From NCBI GenBank assembly GCA_013287025.1, contig JABDEN010000011.1:1-40558 (forward strand): a stretch of DNA of 40,558 nucleotides, written 5' to 3'. Shown piece after piece: positions 7,201 to 36,350 of the stretch; positions within the stretch are counted from its first letter, which is position 1; each line of letters opens with the position of its first letter. Made by a program: the position numbers and the translations under genes. The notes below the pieces were generated by a model. The model was not told the DNA's origin and ran no database searches. It was given only the letters and a program-made list of their open reading frames with translations. The stretch is from Gammaproteobacteria bacterium (GTDB lineage Bacteria > Pseudomonadota > Gammaproteobacteria > DSM-16500).

Positions 7201-8860
7201 CCTCCAGTCTTTGCTTCACGATTTAAATAAAATGGTAGTCAAAACGCATGATGATATCAATAAAAAAGTGGAACTAATTGGAAAAATAAGAGAACAAATT
7301 TCAAAATTAAATGTCACCATCGATCAAATAGAAAAATACGATGTTGGTATGCAAAAGATTAATATAAATAACATACGTGATCAAATTGATTCTGCAAATA
7401 ATGATTGTCTAAAAACCGATAAGGATATTGCTCTGCACCAGGAAGCATTTTTAGAAGTTTTAAAAATTAATGAAGACCTATTAGAAATACGCGAAATTTC
7501 TCATGAAATCCCTGATCATACCATTGAGATAAAGGGCGGAGCGGTATTGCTTCTTGGCTTATATCGTTATGCAAAACAAGAATATAAAGTTGGAAACATT
7601 GATGATGTTGATTTACTTATTTTATCTGATAACCCAAAAGAATTATCCATTCGCCTACAAAAAAATGGTTTTATCGTAGTCGCAGAAGATAAAGATGGAA
7701 AATATATTCAATTAAGAAAGAAAGGTCGATCAGGAAAATTTCTCGATGTTACTATTGGCGATAAGACCAAATATGAAGGAGATGAATTTATTACAGGAGC
7801 TGCCAGTGGTAAAGCAATAATAGTTGACGATATCCAAGATAAAAATATCGATATTCAAACAGGCATGGGCTTTGGATTAATGTTCAAAAAGGAGTTAAAA
7901 GAAGATCCAGATTTTAAAGACAGTCTCGATTCCAAGCAATTGAAAAAAGATTCGAAAGAAAAAATTTACTTTAAAGATTTTCATAATTCCATAGAATATA
8001 AAAAATATGTAATTCAAAAATATAATCCAGAAAAACATGAGAAATATTTTAAAAATATCGTGAAATACAAGAAAAAAATGGTTGAAATATTTGGGCCTTC
8101 CTGTTTGCATTTAGATAAAGGATCACCATTACTTAAGGATAAAACTAAAGTAACGTATGGAATGATTTTATCCGAGATAAAGCAACATTGTATTGATGAG
8201 TTAAAACTTCCTAAGCCTAAAGATCGTAGGATATTTTTAGAAATAAACGCTTTAATTAAATGTTTTGGTATTAATGATGAGGATGTTAAACCTTATTTAG
8301 AAGCATTAATAGAGGCAATGATTCAAAAAGAATTTAAAAACACAAGCGATAATGATTTGCAAGCTATTACTTGTCTAGCACTCGAATCAATTAAATTAAA
8401 ATACAAAGATAATCCATTTCTTTCAGATAAAAATAATCCTTTATTAAGTTCTCGAAAAAATATCGGAACCGCGCAAATGCGAATGGATTTCAAAAAAATA
8501 GTTAGGGATTCTTATAAAGATTTTCACATTTCGCAGGTGCCAAAAAATTATTCGCAGTCAAAGCAAATACATTTTAAACCACCCTCTTATGTTACTCGGT
8601 TTTCTCAATTTACTCAATTTTCTCAATGTCTTATTACTGATGAAGGAGGAAGGAAGCGACAAATTTCTCCAGAGGAAATTTGCAGATCGCCCCAGGTTTT
8701 TAGTCTTCATCAAACTTTAGGCTTTACCCCTGTTAGCAAAGAGCAGTTAATTCAATGGTATCAACAAAATAAATTTACTGAACTCTACCAATTATATTGT
8801 CCTACATTAAACGTCAAGTTGGATGATAGGCCTGAGTATTATCAAAGTTTTCGACAATGA
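4289..8860 (+). CDS. Giant TPR / coiled-coil protein with nucleotidyltransferase-like domain
   Basis: A protein of 1523 residues with several parts. Residues about 85-180 look like TPR-type helices (AFVYFQEAQESFDQGKITDAFELF; THYYLGLCYMRIS). About 410-470 is a Lys/Glu-rich charged linker. About 480-1060 is almost continuous coiled coil. About 1078-1160 carries a nucleotidyltransferase-like signature: GG at 1083-1084, DVD at 1106-1108 followed by LLIL, and a third acid at D1153 (FLDVTIGD). This resembles the GG...[DE]h[DE]...D metal site of MNT/AbiEii/PAP-type enzymes, with a long gap between the GG and DxD. The rest is helical, ending in a Gln/Phe-rich segment and a conserved-looking tail (LIQWYQQNKFTELYQLYCP). 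No signal peptide is seen. Large coiled-coil proteins with embedded enzymes are frequent Legionellales effectors; function here is unknown. It has its own promoter and no close partner. Confidence 0.75.
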   Translation: MFPRTRKVLQVIDESLQISNYFKRLYLNFFFSPSEINDLLDEEHLTLELDDQNVKLPREQKKSEEKEFFSKEGFDELHRLPIMTGDSKLDIAFVYFQEAQESFDQGKITDAFELFKTKVIKSIKDSENEEARIICSKTHYYLGLCYMRISNKQKQEALIQFTTAVELTKDDDKNNDHYFCLIILEILKLLHSPEYSTNYDRVDKVIELNSTYLLGLRKAPAGSAVKKELSKKIVTEFGYTPKDMIRLIDESYLPEIGKIERQDAELMNRFVKSIVLNDFKDFTYKEIVRIFTLISVGFKIKSFVMQEEELKRKLSNVAVEIGKLLTKCQKEKNPIVQKEIARMGIALCLILELTQFPAIVYKSKAFKRKFMPYVKNDKPHLDIPLTISKLTKAEPIFEFVDPKDSIIDIKEEPSYKTKESEKEPIKKEKVEKKVEVQQFVAKEKSPEEKKIISTKEKKSEKQEISVSALEKNARPIHLITTELQEVINLYKTKTAATLKSFQELKNISESKPTREKIAQLNAEYEKMKEEYFKNIQKIENEKREMKASRKKDKTKLKNLDLMLHKKPEIEKDHDEIKKLSSEINDNSKKAMDFSSKFNVIKEEFKLMQNFESAIKFELKKMSTLNVKEATDVKSIELELKRIQSKINDDLLKEATKKLDTIKKIMQKIQQLTKSFQSEVIVEPKVIKNIDQIKIEMASAEKRISRLKKDVSRKQKNIQSQLSEIKRSQASMKHQLKESRNNLKKSMKEIISVTNEEVLKIELEKNNNEVERIRNCEAKLSVILNEEDKSAIASDLKEVKEKQDKALNYATEFSNIYSDVMQANKKMEIHISKLEKLALKVSELNYSRDISTKTNTQAAKNQLNQSFNGIMAQLKKDKKIIQKTKTAILNFEKFNQIFSKEFSLAKTTQSDALFSTYQKLKQDVINTEDLILKIESDANAKFNSASRLIEKDETLLEILEEGLTDNLADLKRLQSLLHDLNKMVVKTHDDINKKVELIGKIREQISKLNVTIDQIEKYDVGMQKININNIRDQIDSANNDCLKTDKDIALHQEAFLEVLKINEDLLEIREISHEIPDHTIEIKGGAVLLLGLYRYAKQEYKVGNIDDVDLLILSDNPKELSIRLQKNGFIVVAEDKDGKYIQLRKKGRSGKFLDVTIGDKTKYEGDEFITGAASGKAIIVDDIQDKNIDIQTGMGFGLMFKKELKEDPDFKDSLDSKQLKKDSKEKIYFKDFHNSIEYKKYVIQKYNPEKHEKYFKNIVKYKKKMVEIFGPSCLHLDKGSPLLKDKTKVTYGMILSEIKQHCIDELKLPKPKDRRIFLEINALIKCFGINDEDVKPYLEALIEAMIQKEFKNTSDNDLQAITCLALESIKLKYKDNPFLSDKNNPLLSSRKNIGTAQMRMDFKKIVRDSYKDFHISQVPKNYSQSKQIHFKPPSYVTRFSQFTQFSQCLITDEGGRKRQISPEEICRSPQVFSLHQTLGFTPVSKEQLIQWYQQNKFTELYQLYCPTLNVKLDDRPEYYQSFRQ

Positions 8861-10065: not shown

Positions 10066-10557
10066 ATGCATCGTAATAAAACCGAAATTCCACGATGCCC
10101 CATTTCATTGGAAGAAGTCACTGAAATTCCACCTAGTAATCTTGTATTGTTATCTGACGGCCAATTATATGATAAAACAGTCATTGAAGATTATCTCACG
10201 GGAAAAAATAAAAACAGTCCAATGACGAGGCTAGAGTTAACGTCACAAATTGCACATACAGGAAAATTTGCTGTGTATGATCTTATCAATGTTATTAAAG
10301 AGCTCCAACAAGAGGTACATGAAAAAGATTTATTAATTCAACACCTACAAAATAAAATCGAATTAGCTCAACATGTATTAAGTAAAAATGACCCTTTGGA
10401 AATAAAAAAAAATAATAAACCCATCACCCACCATTTAAAAAGAAAAATTAAAGTAAATAATCATCCACTCGTGAAAACGTTGCTAAATGCTCCCGAAATA
10501 AAATCAAATCAAATAAATGAACTAAAAACAATAAAAGAAAATGAGCTAAATAAGTGA
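10066..10557 (+). CDS. U-box domain protein, candidate E3 ubiquitin ligase effector
   Basis: Residues about 9-75 form a U-box: RCPISLEEVTEIPPSNLVLLS, then DGQLYDKTVIEDYL and NSPMTRLEL, matching the CPI...G..Y....I..WL......P.T pattern of eukaryotic E3 ligases (RING fold without zinc ligands). A short coiled coil (about 80-115, NVIKELQQEVHEKDLLIQHL) and a basic tail follow. Bacteria have no ubiquitin system, so a U-box protein is expected to act in a eukaryotic host, as LubX does in Legionella (known). Here there is one U-box and no substrate domain beyond the helical part. Strong ribosome binding site; 163 residues; monocistronic. The tail is rich in Lys and Asn. Confidence 0.85.
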   Translation: MHRNKTEIPRCPISLEEVTEIPPSNLVLLSDGQLYDKTVIEDYLTGKNKNSPMTRLELTSQIAHTGKFAVYDLINVIKELQQEVHEKDLLIQHLQNKIELAQHVLSKNDPLEIKKNNKPITHHLKRKIKVNNHPLVKTLLNAPEIKSNQINELKTIKENELNK

Positions 10558-16263: not shown

Positions 16264-17523
16264 ATGTTTCAATGGAAAAAAAGAGCTTTTATTTCGGGTA
16301 TATTTGTACTAGCAAGCACACAGGCTTTAGCTGGACAACCGATTATGATTATTACCCCTAACATGACCTCTGTTGATTTGCCTAATTCAGGAACCGCTAC
16401 GGTAAGTTATACAGTAACTAATAATACACCGCAAAATCAGAAACAATTTAGCATTTTTGCTGATTCAAATATTAGTGATAAGGCGGCAAAAAAAGCCATC
16501 AGCGTACAAAACAATACTTGTACTGGCGTAGTCTCTCCACAACAAAGCTGTGGATTTGATATATTATTAACAAGTAATTCTAATTTAAAAAGTAATTTTG
16601 TATTATCACCTAAAGTATGTGCCTATAATAATTTGGTGTGTTCAGAGCCTGATGTACAAAACCGCGTACAAGTGAATCTCGTTAATGCCCCTCCTCCTGT
16701 ACCTTTAAAAGCATACGTATGTGATGGTTCGGATAATTTGGTGTTTGAATGCACAGTTTCGGCTGGCAGTCTTACCAATTGCGTATCTACTGGGTCAGAT
16801 TTTTCTGATCCAGGATATAGCGCAATTAATGCAGACAAGACACTTTTTTATGTGGTGCAACCATTTACAGATAATATAACAGTCTGTAGTTTTTCTTTGA
16901 CTGGCGATTTGAATTGTTCTGTTGTTACTGTTCCTGTTCCTATGTCAAACTTACTTTCTGGCGCTATTGCGGTTCATCCTTCCAATCAATTTATCTACGT
17001 AGCTGATACGCATAGCCCAAGTAACATTTATAAGTGCGACACAGATTTTAATGTATGTGAAGTCTCCTCCTTAACAATGGATAGGAACAGCGATCTCACC
17101 ATTGATCCCACCGGGACTTATATTTATATACCTCAATCCAATGGTTCGTTGAAAAATTGTAGTTTTCTGGGAAATGGGGATATTAATAATTCTTGCGTTT
17201 TTTCACCTGCACCTGGACCGAGTCAAACTCTTAAAATTGCTATCAATGATACTGAAACATTAGCTTATGTCGTAGGTCAGGGAACACAAGAGGTTTTTTT
17301 ATGTGAGCTAGCGATAGACGGAAGTCTCAGTACATGTAGTCCACAAGCTTCTGTGCCTGCACATATGTATACGGATATAGCGCTTACTCCCGATGGAACC
17401 TACGCTTACATATCGACAGACACTACTATAGTTCAAGGTTGCCCAATTTTACAAAATGGTACATTAGGCGTATGTGTTGAGAATTCATCTTTCTCAGAAT
17501 CTGGCGGTATTGTTTTTCGATAA
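16264..17523 (+). CDS. Secreted Cys-rich beta-propeller-like protein
   Basis: A signal peptide (KKRAFISGIFVLASTQALA, cleavage near AGQ) is followed by an Ig-like or choice-of-anchor type domain (about 25-140, PNMTSVDLPNSGTATVSYTVTNN). Then come about six repeats of 40-50 residues with a recurring pattern of aromatic strand, Cys, short turn, Gly-x-Leu, Cys (AYVCDGSDNLVFECTVSAGSLTNC; ITVCSFSLTGDLNC; LKNCSFLGNGDINNSC; VFLCELAIDGSLSTC; VQGCPILQNGTLGVC). Interspersed are ADKTLFYV, PSNQFIYVAD, PTGTYIYIP and PDGTYAYIS strands, as in YncE/lactonase-type propellers. Paired cysteines imply an exported, disulfide-bonded protein. Function unknown. AGGAG precedes the ATG. The 3' end overlaps the end of the convergent UGT gene by 91 bp. 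Confidence 0.75.
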   Translation: MFQWKKRAFISGIFVLASTQALAGQPIMIITPNMTSVDLPNSGTATVSYTVTNNTPQNQKQFSIFADSNISDKAAKKAISVQNNTCTGVVSPQQSCGFDILLTSNSNLKSNFVLSPKVCAYNNLVCSEPDVQNRVQVNLVNAPPPVPLKAYVCDGSDNLVFECTVSAGSLTNCVSTGSDFSDPGYSAINADKTLFYVVQPFTDNITVCSFSLTGDLNCSVVTVPVPMSNLLSGAIAVHPSNQFIYVADTHSPSNIYKCDTDFNVCEVSSLTMDRNSDLTIDPTGTYIYIPQSNGSLKNCSFLGNGDINNSCVFSPAPGPSQTLKIAINDTETLAYVVGQGTQEVFLCELAIDGSLSTCSPQASVPAHMYTDIALTPDGTYAYISTDTTIVQGCPILQNGTLGVCVENSSFSESGGIVFR

Positions 17524-19598
17524 GCAGAAGCGCTTATTTCAAGTGAACTACTCACAGTTTTAGCCGTGAGTAGTTGAGTTGATTGATTAAAAAATCCATG
17601 TGGATTTATTTGGGCTGATTTTTCTTGTAATTCCTTTTTAAATTGATCCCATATTTTATGATTTAATTTTTCGGGAGCAACATCAACTAAAGAGGGTGTC
17701 GGTCTTATCTTCGAAAACCAATGCATTTTAACTGGATCAACTTGTTTCAATAATCCATTATTAAGGACGTAAAATTTAATATGTTGTTGAACATTTCGAT
17801 CATGCCAATGTTGTTTGACCCATTGTAATTCTTTTACAGTTGCATCACTCAGTTTGTCATTAAACATGCCAATGACAAAATGAATGGTTTTGTTTTTCAA
17901 AGTTGCAAAAAATTCTAATCCACCTAAACAGATATTCCATAGAGTTTTAAGACGAAGGTCATCATTGTCATTTTCATGCTGATCAATTCGACCTAAGGGT
18001 TCCAAATATTTAGGATTTTTTGATAGAAATGCATGATATTCTTTTAATATTTTTTTATAAGCTTCCGACTGAGTTTCAGTGAGTTCTTTTGATAAAGTTG
18101 ATGGATATTTAATAACATCATGATATTGATCAACAATACGGGGTAACATATTTTGTTTTTCGGGATTGGGAAATAAAATTGAAAAAGGCCGTTTATCACC
18201 AATACGAAAATAATGCTGTTTCAAAGCAATTTCTGCTAATTTCCGCCGATCCTGCGAACAGCCATAAAGCAAATCACCTTCTTGCCAATTCAATATTTTC
18301 CAATTTTGTAATGCTTTAATCAGTTGTATAGAAGAAGTAGGTTGAATATTTTTAATTTTCTTAATAGCTTTATTATATGTATCATTATGTAAAATGGTTT
18401 CAATGGCTGCGACAAAATTCTTTTCTGTAAAACTAGGCCGTGAAAATAATTTTGATTGTGTGTTGATGACTAATTCACGATTTTTTTCTTCATGCAAAAA
18501 TGAAATACCAATCTTGGCATTAGAAATATATTCAGCACAAATATGTTGATCACCAAAAAAAGGAATTGCTATCATCGGGGTATTTGTATGAATCGCCTCA
18601 TTCATGCTGTTACCGCCTGCATGTGTAATAAATAAGTCACAATCCTGCAACAATTCTGATTGAGGTATGGACTCATAAATATGAAAATTTTTAGGTGTTA
18701 TATTCAAGACGTTCAATTCCTTGATAGGTCTACCCGTAGAAATAATAAATTCATAATCGGGATGGTTAGCATAATTTTTTAATAATATTTCAAAAATGTT
18801 ATTTACAAAATGTTTTACTGAATCTTCGTGATCCCACAAATTTTTTGTAACAACCGTGCCGAGCGAAAAATATATTATTTTTTTATTCTTCAGTTTTAAA
18901 TTCTTGATTTTTTTCAAAATCGAATGTTCATTCATATCATTATTCATCTCAGGACGCATAAACACGTAATTTTCCGTATTTTTTCTTTCTTCCTGATATT
19001 TTTTTTCATTCATTAATCCTGGCCATGTCCAGATGATATTGTTAAAATCAGAAGGGATAAAAAAACCATCAGAAACCATTTCCAGATGATTGATTAAATC
19101 GATATGATATTTTTTTTCTAATAATTCAAAATATTCTTTATTTTGTTCCAAGCTTTGTTGAAACAAAATATTATGTTTATTAAAATTGCCAAGAATGGCG
19201 GGTACCGAACAAATGACTGGAATGTGTAGCTGTTTTCCAGCGATAAAGCCTTCCGGAGAAAAAAAATCATAAATAATATAATCACTCCCTTTAGCATTTT
19301 CTATTACAGAATCTGTTAACTTGATCGCACGTGGAAATGTGAAATCCATCGGCGCACTACTTTGAATATCTTTTTCATCATTCAAGATGATAATTTTAAT
19401 CCCACAACTTTTTAGTTTTTCTATTTCAGTTTGTGTCAGATTTACATTTTTCCAACCCGTAATGATCATGGTAATTTCAATGTCTGGATTTGTTTTTTTA
19501 ATTTCTTCCCCCCATTTTGCTAGAATCTTATAATGCCCATAAAACGGCACAGTAACCATTGTTAATTTAAGCTTTTGTTTTATAGTTGATGCAAACAT
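17433..19598 (-). CDS. UGT-type glycosyltransferase (GT1) with unusual C-terminal extension
   Basis: Residues 1-about 430 are a GT-B glycosyltransferase like eukaryotic UDP-glucuronosyl/glucosyltransferases and bacterial macrolide transferases: N-terminal MVTVPFYGHYKILAKWGEEI, then KKIIYFSLGTVV, and the donor-site signature THAGGNSMNEAIHTNTPMIAIPFFGDQ (H326). It transfers a sugar from a nucleotide-sugar to a small acceptor (family knowledge). About 435-670 is a further domain not found in ordinary UGTs (WNICLGGLEFFATLKNKTIHFVIG; ELQWVKQHWHDRNVQQHIKFYVLN). The last roughly 50 residues run through the palindromic element and into the antisense of the propeller gene, which suggests loss of an earlier stop codon. 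CGGAG precedes the ATG. It lies 20 nt after the P450 stop, so the two form an operon. Confidence 0.85.
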   Translation of the reverse strand: MFASTIKQKLKLTMVTVPFYGHYKILAKWGEEIKKTNPDIEITMIITGWKNVNLTQTEIEKLKSCGIKIIILNDEKDIQSSAPMDFTFPRAIKLTDSVIENAKGSDYIIYDFFSPEGFIAGKQLHIPVICSVPAILGNFNKHNILFQQSLEQNKEYFELLEKKYHIDLINHLEMVSDGFFIPSDFNNIIWTWPGLMNEKKYQEERKNTENYVFMRPEMNNDMNEHSILKKIKNLKLKNKKIIYFSLGTVVTKNLWDHEDSVKHFVNNIFEILLKNYANHPDYEFIISTGRPIKELNVLNITPKNFHIYESIPQSELLQDCDLFITHAGGNSMNEAIHTNTPMIAIPFFGDQHICAEYISNAKIGISFLHEEKNRELVINTQSKLFSRPSFTEKNFVAAIETILHNDTYNKAIKKIKNIQPTSSIQLIKALQNWKILNWQEGDLLYGCSQDRRKLAEIALKQHYFRIGDKRPFSILFPNPEKQNMLPRIVDQYHDVIKYPSTLSKELTETQSEAYKKILKEYHAFLSKNPKYLEPLGRIDQHENDNDDLRLKTLWNICLGGLEFFATLKNKTIHFVIGMFNDKLSDATVKELQWVKQHWHDRNVQQHIKFYVLNNGLLKQVDPVKMHWFSKIRPTPSLVDVAPEKLNHKIWDQFKKELQEKSAQINPHGFFNQSTQLLTAKTVSSSLEISASAYRKTIPPDSEKDEFSTHTPNVPFCKIGQP
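17535..17575. repeat. Palindromic 3' element, copy 2
   Basis: TATTTCAAGT, then a perfect 10-bp hairpin AACTACTCAC / GTGAGTAGTT (17546-17555 and 17566-17575), starting 12 nt after the propeller-gene stop codon. It shares its leader and stem sequence with the copy at 16137. On the other strand it is translated as part of the UGT tail. Confidence 0.65.
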
Positions 19599-19618
19599 AA
19601 ATTTCTCCGAAGAATGTT

Positions 19619-20995
19619 TTAATGATGAATAGATGTGTTGTCACAATGTTTTGATGCAACAGATGAATCAGAACATTCCAGTCGAGTAAGATAATAATCT
19701 TGCGTCCAGCGTGAGCTCGTGGCATCGATAGGAATGATTTCAATATCTTTATCAAGTTCGATATCGTATTTAACAAGTTCTGATAAAGCTGTTTTGAAAA
19801 CAATCTCATTAAAATTAGCAGCTGCTGGACAAGAACGCTGTCCTAGAGAAAAAGGCATAAAATACTTATCTGCTTCTTTTTTTAAGAAACGCTCTGGCGT
19901 AAATTTTTCTGGTTGATCCCAGTATTTTGGATCATGATGAATGCGACGAATAGGTGCGAATAATAATGCACGATTTGACATTTGATATGTTTTATGATGA
20001 CCTTTATTATCCGTAATATTCATATTGATAGGTTTAGATATCTGTCGTATGATGACTGCTGTCGGCGAAATATAGCGTAAACTTTCTTTATAAATACAAT
20101 GCAAATAAGGTAAGGCACGTAGCGTAGTAAGATTATATTCTTTAACTTCTTGCAATTCTAAACGAAGTTTGTTTAAAATCTCTGGATTTTTGCTAACATA
20201 AATCCATGCTGCCATTATTAATGTTGATAAATTTGCTTCAACTAATAAATTGGAAACACTGCGGGTTTTTTGTAATTTATCTAAGGTATCTTTTCCCTCG
20301 GTTATTTTGGCTTTTTCATTGCTGTAATTATCTCCGTGTAAAATATTTTCAGAGAACTTTGCCAGTAGTTTATTGTTCAGCTTACTCATTTCTTTAACAA
20401 AATGAGCAAACTTCTCTGTGTTTGGATTTTCTTCAGACAATGCGCATCCCGCCTGACGAATGACTTCTGCATCTTCAAATGAAATCTCAGGAATCCCTAG
20501 CACACAATTACCGATAACATTAGCAGTAAAATAGCTAATATTCGTTTGTAAAGAATATTCCAACTTCCAATTTTCTAAGACTTTTTTTATTAAAATGCGA
20601 CTTTGGTTAAATGTATTCTCAATGGCATGTATATCAGATAAAAACGGTTTAATTCTTTTCCTATTTTCTATCGCTTTTTCACCTTGCATATTGATAATAT
20701 TTTCTGTGCCAGCCATTTTTTCTATCATTACGAGAGGCTTCCGTGCTAATAAATCAGGATGGGGGCCATTGCCTTGTTTAGTCACCTCCATTATGTTTTT
20801 TTTATCCCCCGCCACAACCACTAGCGAATTTTCAAATGGAAACAGGCCAACATTTTGAGATAGACCTTCTGCTGTAGCCTTTTCGTATAGTTCATTTAAT
20901 GCAAAATGCTCATTTCCTTCATAATAACGTTTCCATTCATCCGTAATCATTTTCGGTGTTAAAGTAAATAAAGCACTTTGTATTCTACTAATCAT
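19619..20995 (-). CDS. Cytochrome P450
   Basis: A 458-residue heme monooxygenase, the usual length for the family. The K-helix ExxR is KESLRYI (E304, R307). The meander gives DPKYWDQPEKFTPERF. The heme loop is PFSLGQRSCPAA, with the cysteine ligand at C389. The I-helix region (VEANLSTLIMAAWIY) lacks the usual acid before Thr of AGxDTT, so oxygen activation may be unusual. There is no clear N-terminal membrane anchor. P450s insert an oxygen atom into lipophilic substrates using electrons from a reductase; no reductase or ferredoxin is encoded nearby. A strong GGAGG lies 8 nt before the ATG. It is co-directional with the UGT downstream, which could glycosylate the hydroxyl it creates, and is divergent from the PAS-LuxR gene. 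Confidence 0.92.
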   Translation of the reverse strand: MISRIQSALFTLTPKMITDEWKRYYEGNEHFALNELYEKATAEGLSQNVGLFPFENSLVVVAGDKKNIMEVTKQGNGPHPDLLARKPLVMIEKMAGTENIINMQGEKAIENRKRIKPFLSDIHAIENTFNQSRILIKKVLENWKLEYSLQTNISYFTANVIGNCVLGIPEISFEDAEVIRQAGCALSEENPNTEKFAHFVKEMSKLNNKLLAKFSENILHGDNYSNEKAKITEGKDTLDKLQKTRSVSNLLVEANLSTLIMAAWIYVSKNPEILNKLRLELQEVKEYNLTTLRALPYLHCIYKESLRYISPTAVIIRQISKPINMNITDNKGHHKTYQMSNRALLFAPIRRIHHDPKYWDQPEKFTPERFLKKEADKYFMPFSLGQRSCPAAANFNEIVFKTALSELVKYDIELDKDIEIIPIDATSSRWTQDYYLTRLECSDSSVASKHCDNTSIHH

Positions 20996-24831: not shown

Positions 24832-25602
24832 TTATTCGGGGGAGTGTGTTTTAATCTCCGAGCGAAGTTGAGAGATTGTGGGTAATGTTGGGTTTGCTTT
24901 GAATAAATTATTTAAAAATCCTCCACAAGAAGGTGTTTCCGGAGTTGCTGCTTTAATCAGAGCCTTGCATGTTGCATTGGTCGCCAAATCAATCGCCGTT
25001 CTTCCAAATTTCGGATAATGTACTTCAGCTTTATGACTTAATAATATTTCAATGCCTTCAATGCTGTTACTCTGCGCTGCGTTCATCAATGCTGTTGTAC
25101 CATAATTGTCTTGAATATTAGGATCGGCTTTCGCTTCTAATAAAATAGTCAAAACCTCGGGATAATCTTTTTTAAAATCATAAAGAGAAACTTGATGAAG
25201 CATGGTCCTACCTTGACTGTCCTTCCTATTTGGATCTGCTTTAGCTTCAAGCAATGCTTTTATACACGGAACTTTTTTAGTGGCATCTTTAGTCTTAAAA
25301 GAAGAATGATATCCTGCTAAATTCATAAGCGCCGTCACTCCTAAATAATTCGCAGTATCCAACTCAACTTTAGCATCTAACAAACATTTTAACATCGTGA
25401 AATCACTATCCTTAGCAGCCAACATCAAGGGAGTATATCCATCTTTTGTAACTTCAAGATTAGGTTTAGGCAGAACCTTAGTCAAAAAAAATTCTAATTC
25501 TTCTATTTTTTTATTTTCAATTAAATAAAAAAGATCAGCTTTTTGCAATTTTTGTTGATTATGTTGATTAATTTTTTCATGAAATTCCCTATAACTTATC
25601 AT
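24832..25602 (-). CDS. Ankyrin-repeat protein
   Basis: A 256-residue protein built of about five ankyrin repeats: DGYTPLMLAAKDSDFTMLKCLLDAK; LGVTALMNLAGYHS...CIKALLEAKADPNRKD; GRTMLHQVSLYDFKKDYPEVLTILLEAKADPNIQD; GTTALMNAAQSNSIEGIEILLSHKAEV; GRTAIDLATN. A short helical cap lies at the N-terminus and a Pro/Ser-rich tail at the C-terminus. No enzymatic domain or signal peptide. It likely binds a partner protein; a host partner is inference from the effector-like context. Monocistronic, ended by the hairpin at 24785. It is divergent from the acyltransferase gene across a 192-bp AT-rich gap in which I see no confident promoter. Confidence 0.9.
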   Translation of the reverse strand: MISYREFHEKINQHNQQKLQKADLFYLIENKKIEELEFFLTKVLPKPNLEVTKDGYTPLMLAAKDSDFTMLKCLLDAKVELDTANYLGVTALMNLAGYHSSFKTKDATKKVPCIKALLEAKADPNRKDSQGRTMLHQVSLYDFKKDYPEVLTILLEAKADPNIQDNYGTTALMNAAQSNSIEGIEILLSHKAEVHYPKFGRTAIDLATNATCKALIKAATPETPSCGGFLNNLFKANPTLPTISQLRSEIKTHSPE

Positions 25603-26896: not shown

Positions 26897-27742
26897 ATGC
26901 CAATAATAAAAAATGATGATGGTTCATCCACAATTTCAGGAAAAGAGTACGATCAACTACATGCATTGCAAAAACAAATTGAAAAAAAAGAATCTATTTT
27001 AGGTATCGTTAAAGAAATTGATTCTGAAAATTTAAAAATCATTTTAGATTGGCATCTGCCCTATATCACAGATGATTTACATAACACAGACTATCTTAAA
27101 CCAGTTCATATAGCGGCGAAATACGGCAACTTGATTGCCACGATAGAACTTGCTGCCTTAGGCGTAACATTTAATACATTTTCAGGAAGTTATGGAGAAA
27201 GTCCACTGCATTTTGCCGCAGAATATAATCATCCTGAAATAATCGAATACTTAGTCAAAGGAAAACATCTCCCCATTGATATTACAACAAAAAAAACAGA
27301 CTATTATGATAGCAAAGCAGTGACTCCACTATTTAAATGCGCCGTGCGTGGATCGATAGCAGCCGCCACAAGATTAATTTCATTAGGCGCTAATGCAAAT
27401 TATCAAGATTCAAAAGGTAGCACCCCACTACATTATGCATGCGAATATGGTTTTTTCTGGGAAAAACCAGAAGTTGTTTTTCAGTTTATCAGCATGTTGC
27501 TTGAAAAAGGCGCTGATCCTACATTAAAAGGTCACGATAATCTTGGTTATATAAAAACGCCGATTGAAATGATTAATAAAAATGAAGATCGTATTAAAAT
27601 GCAGCAATTACAAAATAAATTTTATCCGAAACAGATTTCACTCATTCCAATGTTTAAGAGAGAAGATAAAGCGCCTGAATCTACATCAAATTCCGAGCCA
27701 AAAATGGAAATTGATAAGAGTTTTGCAAGACCAGGTCAATAA
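26897..27742 (+). CDS. Ankyrin-repeat protein
   Basis: A 281-residue protein. A short N-terminal segment with a coiled helix (KEYDQLHALQKQIEKKESI) is followed by ankyrin repeats: YLKPVHIAAKYGNLIATIELAALG; GESPLHFAAEYNHPEIIEYLVKG; VTPLFKCAVRGSIAAATRLISLGANANYQD; GSTPLHYACEYGF...FISMLLEKGADPTLKG. The C-terminal 50 residues are a disordered Ser/Glu/Lys tail containing SNSEPK, close to the tail motif of two other proteins in this window but lacking the arginine. No catalytic domain. Candidate host-interacting protein by context. AAGGA lies about 10 nt before the ATG. Confidence 0.9.
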   Translation: MPIIKNDDGSSTISGKEYDQLHALQKQIEKKESILGIVKEIDSENLKIILDWHLPYITDDLHNTDYLKPVHIAAKYGNLIATIELAALGVTFNTFSGSYGESPLHFAAEYNHPEIIEYLVKGKHLPIDITTKKTDYYDSKAVTPLFKCAVRGSIAAATRLISLGANANYQDSKGSTPLHYACEYGFFWEKPEVVFQFISMLLEKGADPTLKGHDNLGYIKTPIEMINKNEDRIKMQQLQNKFYPKQISLIPMFKREDKAPESTSNSEPKMEIDKSFARPGQ

Positions 27743-28020: not shown

Positions 28021-30222
28021 ATGCAATCCCAACAAGAATTAAAAAGCAGAAATGAACAAATTACGTTACTTTTGAAAACGATTTTTAAACATCCCACAGA
28101 AATAGAAAAAATCAATTCTTTATTTTATTCATTTACTAAAGAATCAGGACAAATTGCCTTATTTACAGCAGACTATCAAAAAAAAATTGATGAATACATC
28201 ATACTGAAGCTATTAACAAATGATGATGGGATTGATTCTGAAATTCAATTGCTAAAATCACATGGCTTGATTTCCCCAGATGCCGAAGAAATTTTTTATA
28301 CTTCACAAAAAAATGGTTGCAATTTAAAAAATATTTACGCGAAATTTCCCGAAGCATTGCAACAATTTATAGTAAATATGGCTAAGGATAACTTTACTGC
28401 AATATCAAATAGAGAAGTTTTTTTTAATCTATTCAATCAAATATTTTCTTCTCCTGAAATCAGTATGCTCGCAGCCCCGCATTTTGCGAAATTAAATTGG
28501 GTGCGTTTTGGTGCGAACGGCGCATGTTCTGAAAGATGGTCGACATTAGCTGATGCGGTGATTCGTCAGAGTAATTTGCATAAGCATCACCCGCAACTTT
28601 TATTAAAACCCGCAAAGGTTTCTGTAAAGATCCCCGACACTTACCATTTTGATAGTAAAGAATGGAAATTGGAGTGTTTATTAGGAAGAACAGTTCTTTT
28701 TAAAAATTCCCATAATAATATGGTAGCGTTTAAAATCCAAAAAAAGGATGAAAGTGAAAAAGAACTTCAACGAGAATTTCATACTGCTTCTTATCTTAAA
28801 AAACATGCAAATGTCATAAAATTACAAAGCGCAATTCACGAACCAAAAGCAATCGTTGCTATTCCTGATATGAAAATTTGGTTAAATGAAAATGCTTTAA
28901 CAACTGAAGAAGCAAAACAACTTTCGCTTTTAGTTGATTTTAATAAAACTAATATGGCTTATATCTATGAGGTGCCGCAAAAGGAAAATGGTTGTTTTAC
29001 CTATTTACATGATATTACTATTTCAGATCAGGATTTTAGAAAAGCAAATCGAATTATTGTCAACGATTTAATTCGACTATTAAAATATGGATTTTATTAT
29101 CATCAACTTGCAGATATATTTCATACACAAGATAAATCTCGTTATGATAAAGGTCGATATCGAATGTTTGTCAATCTCATTAATAAAACCAATTACGGTA
29201 AAGGACGTTTAGATCAATGGCTGAAGGCAGTCGAATGGTGCAATTTACGTAAAACAGGATTAGTTGATTGGGGTGACTGGATTCCATTGGCAGAATTATT
29301 CAATAATCAAAGTGATTTTGTTCGTAACAATTTTGGGATTCCTTATTCTGGTAGATGGGTGCATGTTCTGACTCCTGAAGATAACATCGGCAATCTTGCT
29401 CTCGTTAATACGATTGCTGAGTATTTATTTGTTTTGGAACTTTGCGCCGGACGTAGAGGTCGTATGCTAAGCCAAATCCATCCCGAATCCCAGAAAATAA
29501 TTTGGGCAAATTTGGCTGAGCTAATGCTAGATAATTGTGCGCAAGCGTTAGGTATATTTTTTAATATTTCAGAATATAAAGTCCGTGATATTTTAACTCA
29601 ATGGATCAGCTTAGATAGATATGCTGAACAAATGCAATTTTGGATGACGGATCAATACATTCCTTATGTTGCAAAAGACACTCCTTTTCCTTCTTCATTA
29701 TATGGACCTGAAGTCGATGCATTGAGTGTAATTGCTCGATATCACTGGGGTACATTTAATGAAAAAACAGGTTGTGCTTGTAATGAAAAAGATCCGGATC
29801 TAGGGCCTTATAATGGACAATTTCCTATTAAAGAAGAAGACAAGCTTTTCCACGTGGTCGCTATTTTCCTGCTTATTATTCAAAATCAGCACGATTTAAA
29901 TTTAGAAAAATTAGCCCAATCTGATAAAGCTATCTCAGAAAAAGATTATTTTGAAGCTAAAAAAAGCTTAGAAAAATGCAATGAATTATTCAAGCAGGCT
30001 CCACGCAAGCACGTAAAAACATTGCATCGTTTAAACGAATTAATGAAAGAAGAAAAGCCTGGGCAAAAACGAGATGAATTGAATCAGTTAATACAATTTC
30101 ATCGAGATGGACTAACAAAATATTATGGCAATAAATGGCTTAGTTGTTATCGAGCCAAATCAGTATCCAAAGATATTACTCCAAATAATCATGGCCTAAA
30201 AAAAAGAAAAAGTTGTCTTTAG
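28021..30222 (+). CDS. Large protein with kinase-like core, candidate effector
   Basis: A 733-residue protein, not recognised by name. After an N-terminal helical region (about 1-190), residues 215-275 look like a kinase small lobe: LECLLGRTVLFKN (Gly-poor P-loop), MVAFKIQKK (K238, VAIK-like), LQREFHTASYLKKH (E252, helix-C-like), then VIKLQSAI and IVAIPDM as hinge strands. Residues 340-425 could be the large-lobe core: RLLKYGFYYHQLADIFHTQ and LRKTGLVDWGDW (D416...D419, DFG-like). The fit is visual only; a true HRD loop is not evident. The rest is helical, with Cys-rich KTGCACNEKDPDLG and a C-terminal coiled region. No signal peptide. AAAGGAA precedes the ATG. Strong isolation by flanking gaps indicates a monocistronic unit. 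Confidence 0.5.
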   Translation: MQSQQELKSRNEQITLLLKTIFKHPTEIEKINSLFYSFTKESGQIALFTADYQKKIDEYIILKLLTNDDGIDSEIQLLKSHGLISPDAEEIFYTSQKNGCNLKNIYAKFPEALQQFIVNMAKDNFTAISNREVFFNLFNQIFSSPEISMLAAPHFAKLNWVRFGANGACSERWSTLADAVIRQSNLHKHHPQLLLKPAKVSVKIPDTYHFDSKEWKLECLLGRTVLFKNSHNNMVAFKIQKKDESEKELQREFHTASYLKKHANVIKLQSAIHEPKAIVAIPDMKIWLNENALTTEEAKQLSLLVDFNKTNMAYIYEVPQKENGCFTYLHDITISDQDFRKANRIIVNDLIRLLKYGFYYHQLADIFHTQDKSRYDKGRYRMFVNLINKTNYGKGRLDQWLKAVEWCNLRKTGLVDWGDWIPLAELFNNQSDFVRNNFGIPYSGRWVHVLTPEDNIGNLALVNTIAEYLFVLELCAGRRGRMLSQIHPESQKIIWANLAELMLDNCAQALGIFFNISEYKVRDILTQWISLDRYAEQMQFWMTDQYIPYVAKDTPFPSSLYGPEVDALSVIARYHWGTFNEKTGCACNEKDPDLGPYNGQFPIKEEDKLFHVVAIFLLIIQNQHDLNLEKLAQSDKAISEKDYFEAKKSLEKCNELFKQAPRKHVKTLHRLNELMKEEKPGQKRDELNQLIQFHRDGLTKYYGNKWLSCYRAKSVSKDITPNNHGLKKRKSCL

Positions 30223-31529: not shown

Positions 31530-32438
31530 ATGACAACACATATGGATTTATGGCCTGAGTTAGAATATACCCAATTTAAGTCCACGGGATATTTATTACA
31601 TAGAATTGTGCAAATTATTGGTAAATTGAAATTAAATACCCCTTTTGAACCGCACTGGTCTAATGTTCCCCTATGGTTAACAGCCAGAGGTTTAACCTCT
31701 GGATTGATTGCTTATCAATCCGGTGTGTTTTGCGTCGAACTTGATATGCTTGATCACAAAATTATTGTCACGACTAGTTGGGGAAAAATGAAGAATTTCG
31801 CAATTGATTCTATGTCGGTTGCTGAATTTACCCATCAATTTTTTAGTCTTTTAGAACAATTGCACATCAATCTAAATATTAATCTCATGCCGCAAGAAAT
31901 TCAAAATCCTATTCCATTTAATCAAGATACGGCTTCGCGACATTATGATAAAACATTAGCGAATGCGTGGTGGAGAATTTTATTAAATACTTACTGTGTT
32001 TTACAAAAATATCATTCACATTTTTCGGGAATAAATCCGCCTATTGGATTAATGTGGGGAACCTTTGATTTGCGCGACGCACGATATAATGGGAAACGAG
32101 TACCCACCACTGGAGACAATGCAGGATATATCAGACGCAATGCAATGGATGAAGCTCAAGTGGAAGCAGGATTTTGGCCTGGGAATGAAATGTATGAAAA
32201 ACCGGCGTATTTTTCCTTTATTTATCCAGCGCCCGATCGTATTGAACTTAGTCAAATAAAACCAGCAAAAGCACGTTGGGATGCAAAATTAATGGAATTT
32301 GTACTAGATTATGATGATGTGCGAACGTCATCACATCCTGAAAAAGATTTACTTGCATTTTTTGAATCAAGTTACAAAGTTGAAAGTGAACTGGCTGGAT
32401 GGAATCATGAGTATATACGGAAAGGCGAGCCGGTATAA
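31530..32438 (+). CDS. DUF5996 family protein
   Basis: A 302-residue protein matching the DUF5996 pattern as I recall it: WPELEYTQFKSTGYLLHRIVQIIGKLKL at the start, PHWSNVPLWLTARGLTSGLI, CVELDMLDHKIIVTTSWGK, MSVAEFTHQFFSLLEQLHINLNI, PIPFNQDTASRHYDKTLANAWWRIL, then INPPIGLMWGTFDLRDARYNGKRVP. The conserved His, Trp and Asp residues suggest a metal or small-ligand site, but no activity is established. It has no signal peptide or membrane segment. It ends 15 nt before the Pls-like synthetase, so the two are very likely co-transcribed from the promoter at 31493. Confidence 0.75.
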   Translation: MTTHMDLWPELEYTQFKSTGYLLHRIVQIIGKLKLNTPFEPHWSNVPLWLTARGLTSGLIAYQSGVFCVELDMLDHKIIVTTSWGKMKNFAIDSMSVAEFTHQFFSLLEQLHINLNINLMPQEIQNPIPFNQDTASRHYDKTLANAWWRILLNTYCVLQKYHSHFSGINPPIGLMWGTFDLRDARYNGKRVPTTGDNAGYIRRNAMDEAQVEAGFWPGNEMYEKPAYFSFIYPAPDRIELSQIKPAKARWDAKLMEFVLDYDDVRTSSHPEKDLLAFFESSYKVESELAGWNHEYIRKGEPV

Positions 32439-32453
32439 AAGGAATCTAAAGAT

Positions 32454-35400
32454 ATGGATAGTCTTCATGCATTCTTCGAACAACAAAGTCATAAATTTCC
32501 TAACAAAATTGCCTTGATCTGTAATGGCATAGAAATGACTTATCGTGAAATTGAAGAATCTGCGAATCAATTCGCTCATTGGTTAATTGCTAAAGGAATC
32601 AAGCCTGAGGATAAAGTGGGTGTCCTCATGGATCGTTCGCCGGATTTGTACATTAGTATGTTAGGAATATTGAAAGCAGGTGGCGCTTATCTTCCCATTG
32701 ACTCAGAATATCCGGCTGAAAGAGTGAAATATATTTTAGAAGATTCAAATCTCACCTTATTGTTAACTTCGAAAATACATCCAGCCGAAGAATTTCAATC
32801 TGATAAAATAATAGAAATTCAAAAAATTAAACCACACCTAGTCCAGCAATCAAAAGACCGTCCACAATTTTCAGGTTTTTCTCCTGATAACGTATGTTAT
32901 GTCATTTATACTTCAGGCACGACAGGTTTTCCTAAAGGTGTGGCTATTACGCATCGCGCAGTAACAAACTATCTGCAATCGGCATTGAAAATTTACGGTA
33001 TGACTGATCAAGATCGAGTTTACCAAGGATTTACCGTGGCTTTTGATGCATCGATGGAAGAAATTTGGCTCGCTTTAGGAAGCGGTGGGACATTGATTAC
33101 AACGGCATCGAGCAAAGTGCAAAAAGGAGCGGCCTTAGTTAAATTTTTAAATTTTCATAAAATAACTTTATTTTCAACAGTGCCCACCATGCTTGCAATG
33201 TTGGAAGACAAAATTCCTTCTTTACGTGTATTAATTCTTGGCGGTGAATTTTGTTCGGAGGAGTTACTTGCGTCTTGGTTTCGGCCTGATCTTCGTATAT
33301 TTAATACTTACGGTCCGACTGAGGCGACCATTATTGCCACTTATCAAGAATGTCGACCCCATCATCCAGTCAACATTGGAAAACCCTTACCAAATTATGA
33401 AGTTGTCATTTTAGATAAACAATTAAAACCGGTGATGGCGGGAGAACAAGGAGAATTATGTATTGCCGGCATTGGCTTAGCAAAAGGTTATATTAATAAA
33501 CCGGAATTAACCGCAGAAAAATTTATTCCATATCCACATGATTTGACTAAGCGACTTTACCGTACGGGAGATATTGCATCCATAACAGATTCCGGAGAAA
33601 TAGAATATGTTGGACGTATCGATGAACAAGTAAAAATTCGCGGTTTTCGCGTTGAACTTTCTGAAATAGAAAACGCTTTAAAAAAAATACCAGATGTGCG
33701 TAATTCCGTCGTTGTAGAATCTCAGGAATTACATGCATTAATTGGTTATGTGGTGCTGAAAAATAATTCCACGCTGACCTCTGATCAGATGACCAAATTC
33801 TTACGTAAACAGTTACCTCAATATATGATTCCTTTAACAATCATTATACTTTCTGAATTTCCTAAAATGATAAATGGTAAAATCAATAAAAAATTATTAC
33901 CTCCTCCAAATATAAAAGAAATTGAGGCGAGCCATCAATATCAAGCACCGACAACTCACCTGGAGAAGAAAATTGCTGCGATTTGGGAAAAAGTATTAAA
34001 TGTTTCATCCATCTCTATTAATGCAGATTTTTTTGCTGACCTCGGCGGTCATTCTCTAGCTGCAGCCACTGTGATTTCTGAAATGCGGATGGATAAAGAA
34101 ATGCGTACGGCTTCATTAATTAATATCTTTGAGAATCCGACCATAAAACAACTCGCAGAACAAATACATGATTCAACGCAGCAAGAAGAAACAAAAAAAG
34201 TGCATTATTATGCAGGACCTAAGAGTATCTTCGAAAAAATTCAATATTATATTTGTGCTTTTTTTCAAGCATTAATCGCTTTAGTGCTTGTCACTATTTC
34301 TCCCTGGCATTTTTTAATTATTACAGTCATTGTATTTACATTTACGATGAATGCAGGTTTTACCTTAGAGCAAATTATTTTATATTGGCTGGCTTTTTTA
34401 TTTTTGTTAGAACCCGGGCTTATTGTTTTTAGCATCGCTGTCAAATGGCTAATCCTAGGAAAAATAAAACCAGGCCAACATAAATTATGGAGTTGGTATT
34501 ATTTACGTTGGTGGGTCGTCAATCAATTACAAGATCTTGCACCAATTGATCATTTGGTCGGTAGTCCTTTTATTATTCTTTATTGTAGAGCAATGGGTGC
34601 AAAGATCGGTAAAAATTGTTATATCGGCACCGATCAGTTTAGTTCTTTTGACTTATTCAGTATGGGAGATAATTCCAGTATTTGTGCCGACGTTATTGCC
34701 TCAGGTTATAAGGTGGAAAATGGTTGGTTAAAAATAGGTGCAATTACCATTGGACAAAATTGTTTTGTCGGTGCAAATTCTGTATTAAGCATTAATACAA
34801 CTCTTGAAAATAATAGTAAATTAGGCGAGCACTCTTTACTTTCTGCGGGACAAACCATACCAGAAAATGAAAGCTATATTGGTTCTCCATCTCGACCCGG
34901 ATTTATCAAACTTTCAGAAGATAACATCCAACCACTTCCCAATTCTTACTTAAAAAATTTTTTACTATGGCTATGTCAATATTCACTATTAATGCTTTTA
35001 GAATTTACCTATGTAATTGCAGCGCTCCCGGGTATTGTGATGATCGTTTATTTTTCCTATATACAAAAAAACTATTTTAATTGTATTTGGGCGATACCGC
35101 TTGCGGGATGTCTATTTATCATTTTATTAGTTTTGCAAATTTCGCTCTTAAAAAAAATTTTTGGTCCAATCAAACCAGGAAGTTATTCAATCAAAAGTTT
35201 TGGTTATCTGAAAATATGGTTTGTTGAACGATTATTAGGACTGAGCTTAGGAGCGATGGAAGCGCTTTATGGCACCATATATACAGCTAAATGGTTTCGT
35301 TTAATGGGTGCTAAGGTTGGTAAAAACTCTGAAATGGCAACAGTCAATTTTAGTCTTCCTGATATGATGGAGATTGGTAAGGAATGTTTTATTGGTGATA

Positions 35401-36350
35401 GTGCGATATTATCTCCTGCGCGTATTTTTCAAGGCTATATTCATCTGCATCCTGTACATATTGGAAATCATGTATTTATTGGCAATGGTGCAGTTATTCC
35501 CGCTGGGGCAAGACTTAGTGATGATTGTTTAATTGCTTCAGCATCATTATCACCAATCGATGTACCAGAAAATAGTAATTGGCTGGGAACGCCTGCTGTC
35601 TTTTTACCTCAGCGCGATATTCATTCTGGTTATTCCGCAAGTGACACTTATAAACCTTCTTTTAAATCTCTTATCATTCGTGGCATTATTGAATTTATTA
35701 AAATATTTTTACCTGCAGCATGTGTCTATTTAATTTTATCTTTAGATGTCATGACATTTGTATATTTGAAAGATAAATATTCTTTATTATTTGCCATTTT
35801 AATATTTCCACTTTTTTCAATTTTATATGTGCTAGCTGAAGTTTTTTTAATAATATTTTTAAAATGGATATTGATTGGTAGATATCAAGAAACTGAAGCA
35901 CCCATGTGGAGTTCTTTTGTTTATCGTAGTGAATTAGTTACTTCTTTATATGATAATATAGTTGTTCCGCTTTTTTTAGAAGCCTTCTTAGGTAGCCCTT
36001 ATATCGTTTATTTTCTTCGTCTTTTCGGGGTCAACATTGGCAAATATGCTTTTATCAATACGCCTTATTTTTCTGAATTTGATTTAGTAAAAATCGGGAA
36101 TAGCGTATGTTTAAATAAAGACTCTACGATACAGACGCATTTATATGAAGACAGAATTTTTAAGATGTCGACGATAACAATTGCAGATGGTTGTACCGTA
36201 GGAGATAGATCTATTTTACTTTATGATACGGTGATGCAAAATCATTCTTCCTTAGGTAATTTATCACTTTTAATGAAAGGAGAAATATTGTATCCTTCGA
36301 GCGATTGGGAAGGTATACCTTCGAAAAGAGTTTACCGATCAAAATTTTAG
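32454..36350 (+). CDS. Pls/PosA-type single-module peptide synthetase (A-T-membrane domains)
   Basis: A 1298-residue protein. The adenylation domain (about 1-480) shows all core motifs: YVIYTSGTTGFPKGVAITHRA, NTYGPTEATI, GELCIAGIGLAKGYI, LYRTGDIA, GRIDEQVKIRGFRVELSEIE and NGKINKKLLP. The carrier domain (about 500-575) has DLGGHSL with phosphopantetheine serine S534. Then come six membrane helices in three pairs (about 598-675, 840-905, 1080-1145), each followed by a soluble domain with hexapeptide-repeat-like strands (MGAKIGKNCYIG; MGAKVGKNSEMA; FGVNIGKYAFIN). This A-T-TM layout, without ordinary C or TE domains, is that of epsilon-poly-L-lysine synthetase (Pls) and relatives, which make homopolymers of diamino acids. 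Aligning by eye to GrsA gives pocket residues D-A-E-S-I-G-T-I-I-K (first three at 198, 199, 202), very close to the published lysine code DAESIGSVCK. Partner: the DUF5996 gene 15 nt upstream. Confidence 0.9.
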   Translation: MDSLHAFFEQQSHKFPNKIALICNGIEMTYREIEESANQFAHWLIAKGIKPEDKVGVLMDRSPDLYISMLGILKAGGAYLPIDSEYPAERVKYILEDSNLTLLLTSKIHPAEEFQSDKIIEIQKIKPHLVQQSKDRPQFSGFSPDNVCYVIYTSGTTGFPKGVAITHRAVTNYLQSALKIYGMTDQDRVYQGFTVAFDASMEEIWLALGSGGTLITTASSKVQKGAALVKFLNFHKITLFSTVPTMLAMLEDKIPSLRVLILGGEFCSEELLASWFRPDLRIFNTYGPTEATIIATYQECRPHHPVNIGKPLPNYEVVILDKQLKPVMAGEQGELCIAGIGLAKGYINKPELTAEKFIPYPHDLTKRLYRTGDIASITDSGEIEYVGRIDEQVKIRGFRVELSEIENALKKIPDVRNSVVVESQELHALIGYVVLKNNSTLTSDQMTKFLRKQLPQYMIPLTIIILSEFPKMINGKINKKLLPPPNIKEIEASHQYQAPTTHLEKKIAAIWEKVLNVSSISINADFFADLGGHSLAAATVISEMRMDKEMRTASLINIFENPTIKQLAEQIHDSTQQEETKKVHYYAGPKSIFEKIQYYICAFFQALIALVLVTISPWHFLIITVIVFTFTMNAGFTLEQIILYWLAFLFLLEPGLIVFSIAVKWLILGKIKPGQHKLWSWYYLRWWVVNQLQDLAPIDHLVGSPFIILYCRAMGAKIGKNCYIGTDQFSSFDLFSMGDNSSICADVIASGYKVENGWLKIGAITIGQNCFVGANSVLSINTTLENNSKLGEHSLLSAGQTIPENESYIGSPSRPGFIKLSEDNIQPLPNSYLKNFLLWLCQYSLLMLLEFTYVIAALPGIVMIVYFSYIQKNYFNCIWAIPLAGCLFIILLVLQISLLKKIFGPIKPGSYSIKSFGYLKIWFVERLLGLSLGAMEALYGTIYTAKWFRLMGAKVGKNSEMATVNFSLPDMMEIGKECFIGDSAILSPARIFQGYIHLHPVHIGNHVFIGNGAVIPAGARLSDDCLIASASLSPIDVPENSNWLGTPAVFLPQRDIHSGYSASDTYKPSFKSLIIRGIIEFIKIFLPAACVYLILSLDVMTFVYLKDKYSLLFAILIFPLFSILYVLAEVFLIIFLKWILIGRYQETEAPMWSSFVYRSELVTSLYDNIVVPLFLEAFLGSPYIVYFLRLFGVNIGKYAFINTPYFSEFDLVKIGNSVCLNKDSTIQTHLYEDRIFKMSTITIADGCTVGDRSILLYDTVMQNHSSLGNLSLLMKGEILYPSSDWEGIPSKRVYRSKF

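What the first reader, a model, noticed from the sequence alone, without database searches (positions are those of the whole stretch)
32454..36350. Pls-like synthetase with a lysine-type pocket: possible poly-lysine-like polymer
The architecture is that of epsilon-poly-L-lysine synthetase and the ten pocket residues read by eye are DAESIGTIIK, differing from the known lysine code DAESIGSVCK at three positions. A cationic polymer from an intracellular bacterium would be unexpected; it could be an antimicrobial or a surface or effector compound.
Basis: partly seen in the sequence, partly recalled or inferred. Interest (0 to 1): 0.75.

Follow-up and report, generated by a model that had tools for sequence, protein, structure and literature searches.

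The report
Likely lysine-polymer synthetase from uncultured gammaproteobacterium
This gene encodes a complete one-piece enzyme of the family that makes chains of positively charged amino acids, with a ten-residue substrate pocket that differs from that of the known lysine-polymer enzyme only by two valine-to-isoleucine swaps, so this probably host-associated bacterium is predicted to make a poly-lysine; the enzyme kind is already known, while its occurrence here would be unusual.

Summary
ORF 32454-36350 (+, 1298 aa) is an intact adenylation-carrier-membrane polymerase of the Pls/PosA family (TIGR02353, 554 bits, cut-off 423). Its ten pocket residues are DAESIGTIIK. The best yardstick is not the bacitracin code but the crystallised epsilon-poly-lysine synthase, DAESIGTVVK: two conservative changes. 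The same extraction returned the published code of the Acinetobacter ornithine enzyme PosA letter for letter. The nine closest homologues have DAES(I/V)GTIIK. The modelled C-terminal half (pLDDT 92) shows three pairs of membrane helices and three beta-helix lobes, as published for PosA. Across 123 relatives most strictly conserved polar residues sit in the third lobe, so that lobe is the predicted site of bond formation. The host is an uncultured gammaproteobacterium, probably of an order in which 31 of 36 genomes carry the Dot/Icm gene dotH/icmK; 1 of those 36 has this enzyme. Relatives in many phyla, Proteobacteria included, are published, so this is a new member of a known kind. Lysine as monomer is likely, though a wider pocket shell does not separate lysine from ornithine enzymes; polymer, length and role are untested. 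Neighbouring genes are not conserved and give no role.

The parts
32454..36350 (+). Pls/PosA-family synthetase, 1298 aa, A-T-(TM/C1-C3)
32460..33899 (+). adenylation domain, about residues 3-482
   Evidence: PDB relatives by sequence include 7wew (epsilon-poly-L-lysine synthase), E 1.1e-73
33045..33881 (+). substrate-pocket residues D198 A199 E202 S241 I261 G263 T285 I293 I294 K476
   Evidence: PosA control
33969..34163 (+). carrier (T) domain, attachment Ser534 at 34053-34055 in motif GGHS
   Evidence: Ser in 123 of 123 aligned rows
34227..36347 (+). membrane polymerase part: helix pairs 592-633/638-668, 832-870/874-903, 1070-1108/1111-1140 and beta-helix lobes C1 672-824, C2 906-1059, C3 1142-1298 (lobe limits set by me from the model)
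   Evidence: AlphaFold2 model, pLDDT 92.1, pTM 0.91; best 19-residue helix hydropathy 2.06-2.61; fold matches
35877..36347 (+). C3 lobe with R1189, E1208, H1229, D1233, E1277, predicted condensation site; His1229 at 36138-36140
   Evidence: each in at least 122 of 123 rows and in 16 of 16 reference rows, window included
31530..32438 (+). DUF5996 gene, 15 bases upstream, probably co-transcribed; not a constant partner
   Evidence: found in 6 of 36 order genomes, none of which has the synthetase over the cut-off, and not in the L001 genome, which has it

Best explanation
The gene encodes an intact Pls/PosA-family synthetase with a ten-residue pocket two conservative changes from that of the known lysine polymerase, and it likely activates L-lysine and joins it into a short epsilon-linked poly-lysine at the membrane. 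Predicted steps: the A domain would adenylate L-lysine, Glu202 holding the side-chain amine and the small Ala199 leaving room for six carbons; the lysyl group would pass to the phosphopantetheine arm on Ser534; the membrane-anchored triple beta-helix would bring a free lysine or growing chain to the thioester; and the C3 lobe, with His1229 as likely base, would form the isopeptide bond. Shown here: domains, pocket letters, conservation. Predicted: the fold. Inferred: monomer, polymer, linkage, catalytic lobe. Unknown: when it is made and what it is for.
For: Family score over its curated cut-off. Pocket 8 of 10 identical to Pls, 5 of 10 to PosA (ornithine), 5 of 10 to the beta-lysine enzyme, 3 of 10 to a DAB-type sequence. 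Published rule for position 2 (F for DAP/DAB, M for Orn, A for Lys; PosA M218A raised lysine activation) and for Glu at position 3 (PMC10522769, passages): the window has A and E. The DFE-type Streptomyces reference sits beside a diaminobutyrate transaminase and an aspartate kinase gene, as the rule predicts. Of the nine closest homologues eight have DAESIGTIIK and one has V at position 5, at 53-64% identity. Carrier serine and H1229 in 123 of 123 rows. Modelled C-terminal topology as published for PosA. An Sfp-type phosphopantetheinyl transferase gene is in the genome of the 63% relative.
Against: The window's clade of 36 sequences holds none of the reference rows that stand for characterised enzymes; the Streptomyces Pls-type sequences are only 29-30% identical over the full length. 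Over a wider 34-position shell (recalled position list) the window is as close to PosA (22 of 34) as to Streptomyces Pls (22-23 of 34), so only the inner ten residues favour lysine. Positions 8 and 9 are I and I, not V and V. PosA also activates lysine without polymerising it (PMC10522769), so activation need not mean a polymer. No degrading-enzyme or exporter gene was recognised beside the gene.
Confidence: 0.75

Rival explanations
1. The enzyme activates lysine but transfers one or a few lysyl groups to another acceptor, such as a surface glycan, instead of building a homopolymer.
For: Each C lobe resembles sugar or serine acetyltransferases in the fold comparison; in two of three unnamed or MAG gammaproteobacterial loci with a lysine-type code the gene lies beside polysaccharide genes: glycosyltransferases and a sugar transferase in L001, O-antigen ligase-like and heptosyltransferase genes in L066. 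Recombinant Pls can esterify glycerol and PEG (PMC9606270, passages).
Against: No family member met in the passages read is described as doing so; the genes scanned beside the synthetase in the window, L064 and L065 (code not read) form no polysaccharide cluster.
Confidence: 0.1
2. The monomer is another basic amino acid (beta-lysine, arginine, ornithine, a hydroxylysine), so the polymer is not epsilon-poly-L-lysine.
For: Only a ten-letter code supports lysine; the 34-position shell does not separate it from PosA. A FAD-dependent oxidoreductase gene lies two genes upstream.
Against: The ornithine (M at 2), DAB-type (F at 2), beta-lysine (G at 2, S at 6) and Bdellovibrionales (weak arginine activity) codes all match worse; no homologue of the FAD gene was found in L001.
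Confidence: 0.12
3. The gene is intact but silent, or without a role in this host.
For: Patchy: over the cut-off in 1 of 36 order genomes and 8 of 369 class genomes; the G101 match carries an in-frame stop; Corynebacterium variabile showed no epsilon-PL under the culture conditions used though its enzyme works in Streptomyces (PMC8117764, passages).
Against: Open frame with core residues kept and base composition like its surroundings (34.9% against 34.1% GC); the closest relatives keep the code at 53-64% identity.
Confidence: 0.1

Closest known systems
[quoted passage not shown]
   Same: A-T-TM/C1-C3 architecture, DAESIGT pocket start, invariant C3 residues in the Streptomyces homologues compared
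   Different: two pocket positions I for V; 29-30% identity to the three Streptomyces Pls-type sequences compared; no degrading-enzyme gene recognised beside it
PosA, delta-poly-L-ornithine synthetase of Acinetobacter baumannii (PMC10522769)
   Same: architecture, predicted triple beta-helix on six helices, gammaproteobacterial
   Different: pocket DMEHNGTVSK (Met at position 2) against DAESIGTIIK; 35% identity
Legionella jordanis amino acid adenylation protein (P0105)
   Same: family, pocket DAESIGTVIK; the genus has a Dot/Icm system (recalled)
   Different: 38% identity over the C-terminal part, 41% over all aligned positions; no study of it found in the searches
Centralia soil MAG homologue (L001, 98% identical to P0002)
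   Same: 63% identity, identical pocket
   Different: lies inside a glycosyltransferase cluster; no DUF5996 match in that genome

Membership tests
Pls/PosA cationic homo-poly(amino acid) synthetases (TIGR02353) | terminal membrane polymerase domain over the curated cut-off | tested here: met
   554.4 against 423.1 bits
Pls/PosA cationic homo-poly(amino acid) synthetases (TIGR02353) | A domain plus carrier domain with attachment serine, no canonical C or TE domain | tested here: met
   Ser534
Pls/PosA cationic homo-poly(amino acid) synthetases (TIGR02353) | three helix pairs and three left-handed beta-helices | tested here: met
Pls/PosA cationic homo-poly(amino acid) synthetases (TIGR02353) | Asp at position 1 and Glu at position 3 of the pocket | tested here: met
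   rule from PMC10522769
Pls/PosA cationic homo-poly(amino acid) synthetases (TIGR02353) | homopolymer product | not testable with these tools
   needs enzyme assay and LC-MS
[quoted passage not shown]
   DAESIGTIIK against DAESIGTVVK
[quoted passage not shown]
   22-23 of 34 against 22 of 34; position list recalled
[quoted passage not shown]
   in all three trees the window's clade of 36 excludes the Streptomyces Pls-type and PosA rows; sampling biased to the window's relatives, root chosen
[quoted passage not shown]
   no experiment possible

The most novel reading that the evidence does not exclude
A host-dwelling Dot/Icm bacterium makes its own epsilon-poly-lysine, a membrane-active, cell-penetrating polycation, either to clear rivals from its host cell or to coat its surface, and the whole enzyme family forms the bond in one lobe (C3, His1229) of a pseudo-threefold acetyltransferase-like membrane barrel, the other two lobes being scaffold.
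Probability: 0.25. Interest if true: 0.6.

Novelty: new member of a known kind. Interest (0 to 1): 0.36.

Why it matters
If the product is confirmed, it would put a food-preservative-type polycation in a lineage whose relatives carry the Dot/Icm host-manipulation machinery, where its role could be studied. The conservation pattern names a testable active site (C3, His1229) for a polymerase whose chain assembly is described as not completely understood (PMC9205021, passages).

Tried and rejected
Operon partners: DUF5996 and the FAD oxidoreductase were considered as tailoring genes and rejected as constant partners. Around DUF5996 in five of the six order genomes that have it (the sixth, L057, was not examined) none of the 26 window proteins searched matched besides DUF5996 itself, except one partial FAD match of 31% in L059. 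Sequence search of C3 alone against the PDB gave only weak matches, best E 0.017 to a hexapeptide transferase. A search for defence genes among 8 unannotated window ORFs gave nothing. The window's own genome is not held, so Dot/Icm and a phosphopantetheinyl transferase could not be looked for in it. No phosphopantetheinyl transferase showed among 28 of 32 window ORFs of 100 aa or more, each scanned in at least one of Pfam and NCBIfam. Papers on Pls in Legionella: nothing on the point in the listings. Two paper searches on the polymerase part and two more showed no residue-level mechanism in their listings; most subscription papers are not held.

Full report
What is there. ORF 32454-36350 encodes 1298 residues with no interruption. 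Pfam gives AMP-binding, AMP-binding_C, PP-binding and hexapeptide repeats; NCBIfam gives TIGR02353 (Pls/PosA family) at 554.4 bits, over its cut-off of 423.1. The architecture is adenylation, carrier, membrane polymerase, with no canonical condensation or thioesterase domain.

The pocket. By alignment the code is DAESIGTIIK. Two checks support the method. The same columns give DMEHNGTVSK for the A. baumannii enzyme, the published PosA code. A Streptomyces relative whose gene sits beside a diaminobutyrate transaminase and an aspartate kinase gives DFECLSAVTK, the Phe-at-position-2 type that PMC10522769 assigns to DAP/DAB enzymes. The crystallised epsilon-poly-L-lysine synthase 7wew reads DAESIGTVVK in the printed alignment, as do three Streptomyces homologues. 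The window differs at positions 8 and 9, valine to isoleucine in both. The position-2 rule in that paper, backed by its M218A result, points to lysine. Against this, a wider 34-position shell (list recalled) does not separate Pls (22-23 of 34) from PosA (22 of 34).

Relatives. One search listed 120 of 771 matches, itself from the 7994 candidates scored. In the 112 proteins longer than 1000 aa, window included, the code was DAESIGTVIK in 66, DAESIGTVVK in 18, DAESIGTIIK in 10, DAESIGTIVK in 4, and others in 14, four of these wholly or partly gapped. The later set of 123 sequences is 107 of the 119 other proteins (12 of 1150 aa or fewer dropped), the window and 15 further loci; one pair in it, L001 and P0002, is 98% identical. 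There position 2 is Ala in 110 and position 3 is Glu in 123. These sets were drawn mostly by likeness to the window's C-terminal half, so they say little about the family at large. In trees of the A part, the C part and both, rooted on the DAB-type reference, the window sits in a clade of the same size, 36 (support 1.0, 0.91, 1.0); 35 of 36 have Ala at position 2 and one has Gly, and the Streptomyces Pls-type and PosA rows fall outside.

A pattern worth testing. Counting polar or charged residues kept in at least 97% of 123 rows and in all 16 reference rows, C1 has 0 of 153 positions, C2 has 1 of 154 (N1011) and C3 has 5 of 157 (R1189, E1208, H1229, D1233, E1277). With the looser rule of at least 97% of 123 rows and only H, D, E, K, R or C, the counts are 1 (R685), 2 (E960, R1006) and 9. 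H1229, E1208, D1233 and E1277 are in 123 of 123. I infer that C3 holds the bond-forming site and C1 and C2 are mainly scaffold. All three lobes are reported essential in Pls, second-hand in PMC4668381 (passages); that fits a scaffold role but equally a shared one. The primary mutational paper is not held, so I cannot say the point is unpublished.

Host and context. The window also has a SidJ-like gene (230.9 bits, below the 400 cut-off) and ankyrin-repeat genes. Other orders were not compared, so membership of that order is an inference. In that order 31 of 36 genomes carry dotH/icmK and 1 of 36 carries the synthetase over the cut-off. In 369 genomes drawn from the class, 8 do, and a ninth, G057, has it in two pieces below the cut-off. 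Of the 8, seven were read: three lysine-type codes, two PosA-type, one DAB-type and DLEDIGSVVK; the eighth has an in-frame stop and was not read. Two of the lysine-type ones, L064 and L066, are 60% and 66.5% identical to the Legionella jordanis protein. The family is also on plasmids: 65 of 72,556 plasmid records hold a place covering at least 80% of the query. Neighbours are not conserved: L001 lies among glycosyltransferases, L066 beside O-antigen ligase-like and heptosyltransferase genes, L064 and L065 among other genes (7 neighbours scanned in each). DUF5996, 15 bases upstream in the window, occurs in 6 of 36 order genomes, none of them the one with the synthetase. GC content of the gene, 34.9%, is close to that of the window, 34.1%. 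The genome of L001 has an Sfp-type phosphopantetheinyl transferase.

Mechanism. Lysine would be adenylated, loaded on Ser534 and joined to a lysine or growing chain that stays unattached, as described for Pls (PMC9205021, passages). The substrate step rests on the inner pocket; polymer, linkage and active site are inferred.

Verdict. A sound observation, read correctly by eye, of a new and divergent member of a known enzyme family. PMC10522769 already reports such enzymes across many bacterial phyla, fungi and other groups (section 10). What remains of interest is the host lineage and the single-lobe active-site prediction.

Noticed in passing
28021-30222 (+): 733-aa protein matching the SidJ polyglutamylase family over residues 198-660 at 230.9 bits, below the family cut-off of 400: a divergent SidJ-like candidate effector.
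   Followed up: no
34-816 (+), 24832-25602 (-), 26897-27742 (+): Three ankyrin-repeat proteins; the last two have weak matches, far below cut-off, to Dot/Icm Ank effector models, the first was scanned in Pfam only.
   Followed up: no
10066-10557 (+): Short protein with a weak U-box match (23.6 bits, cut-off 21.4), a eukaryote-type ubiquitin ligase fold.
   Followed up: no
17433-20995 (-): A protein with a macrolide-glycosyltransferase-like match (107 bits, cut-off 260) beside a cytochrome P450-like gene, possibly a second small-molecule locus.
   Followed up: no
4289-8860 (+): 1523-aa ORF, 29.1% GC, with no Pfam or PADLOC match.
   Followed up: no
35469-35471 (residue 1006): The window has His where 120 of 123 aligned sequences have Arg in the C2 lobe.
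   Followed up: partly
L021: A Streptomyces Pls-type gene is followed directly by an M1 metallopeptidase gene, possibly the matching degrading enzyme.
   Followed up: no
P0017, P0043, P0050: Relatives of 1759, 1722 and 1059 aa carry a phosphopantetheinyl transferase domain in the same protein.
   Followed up: no
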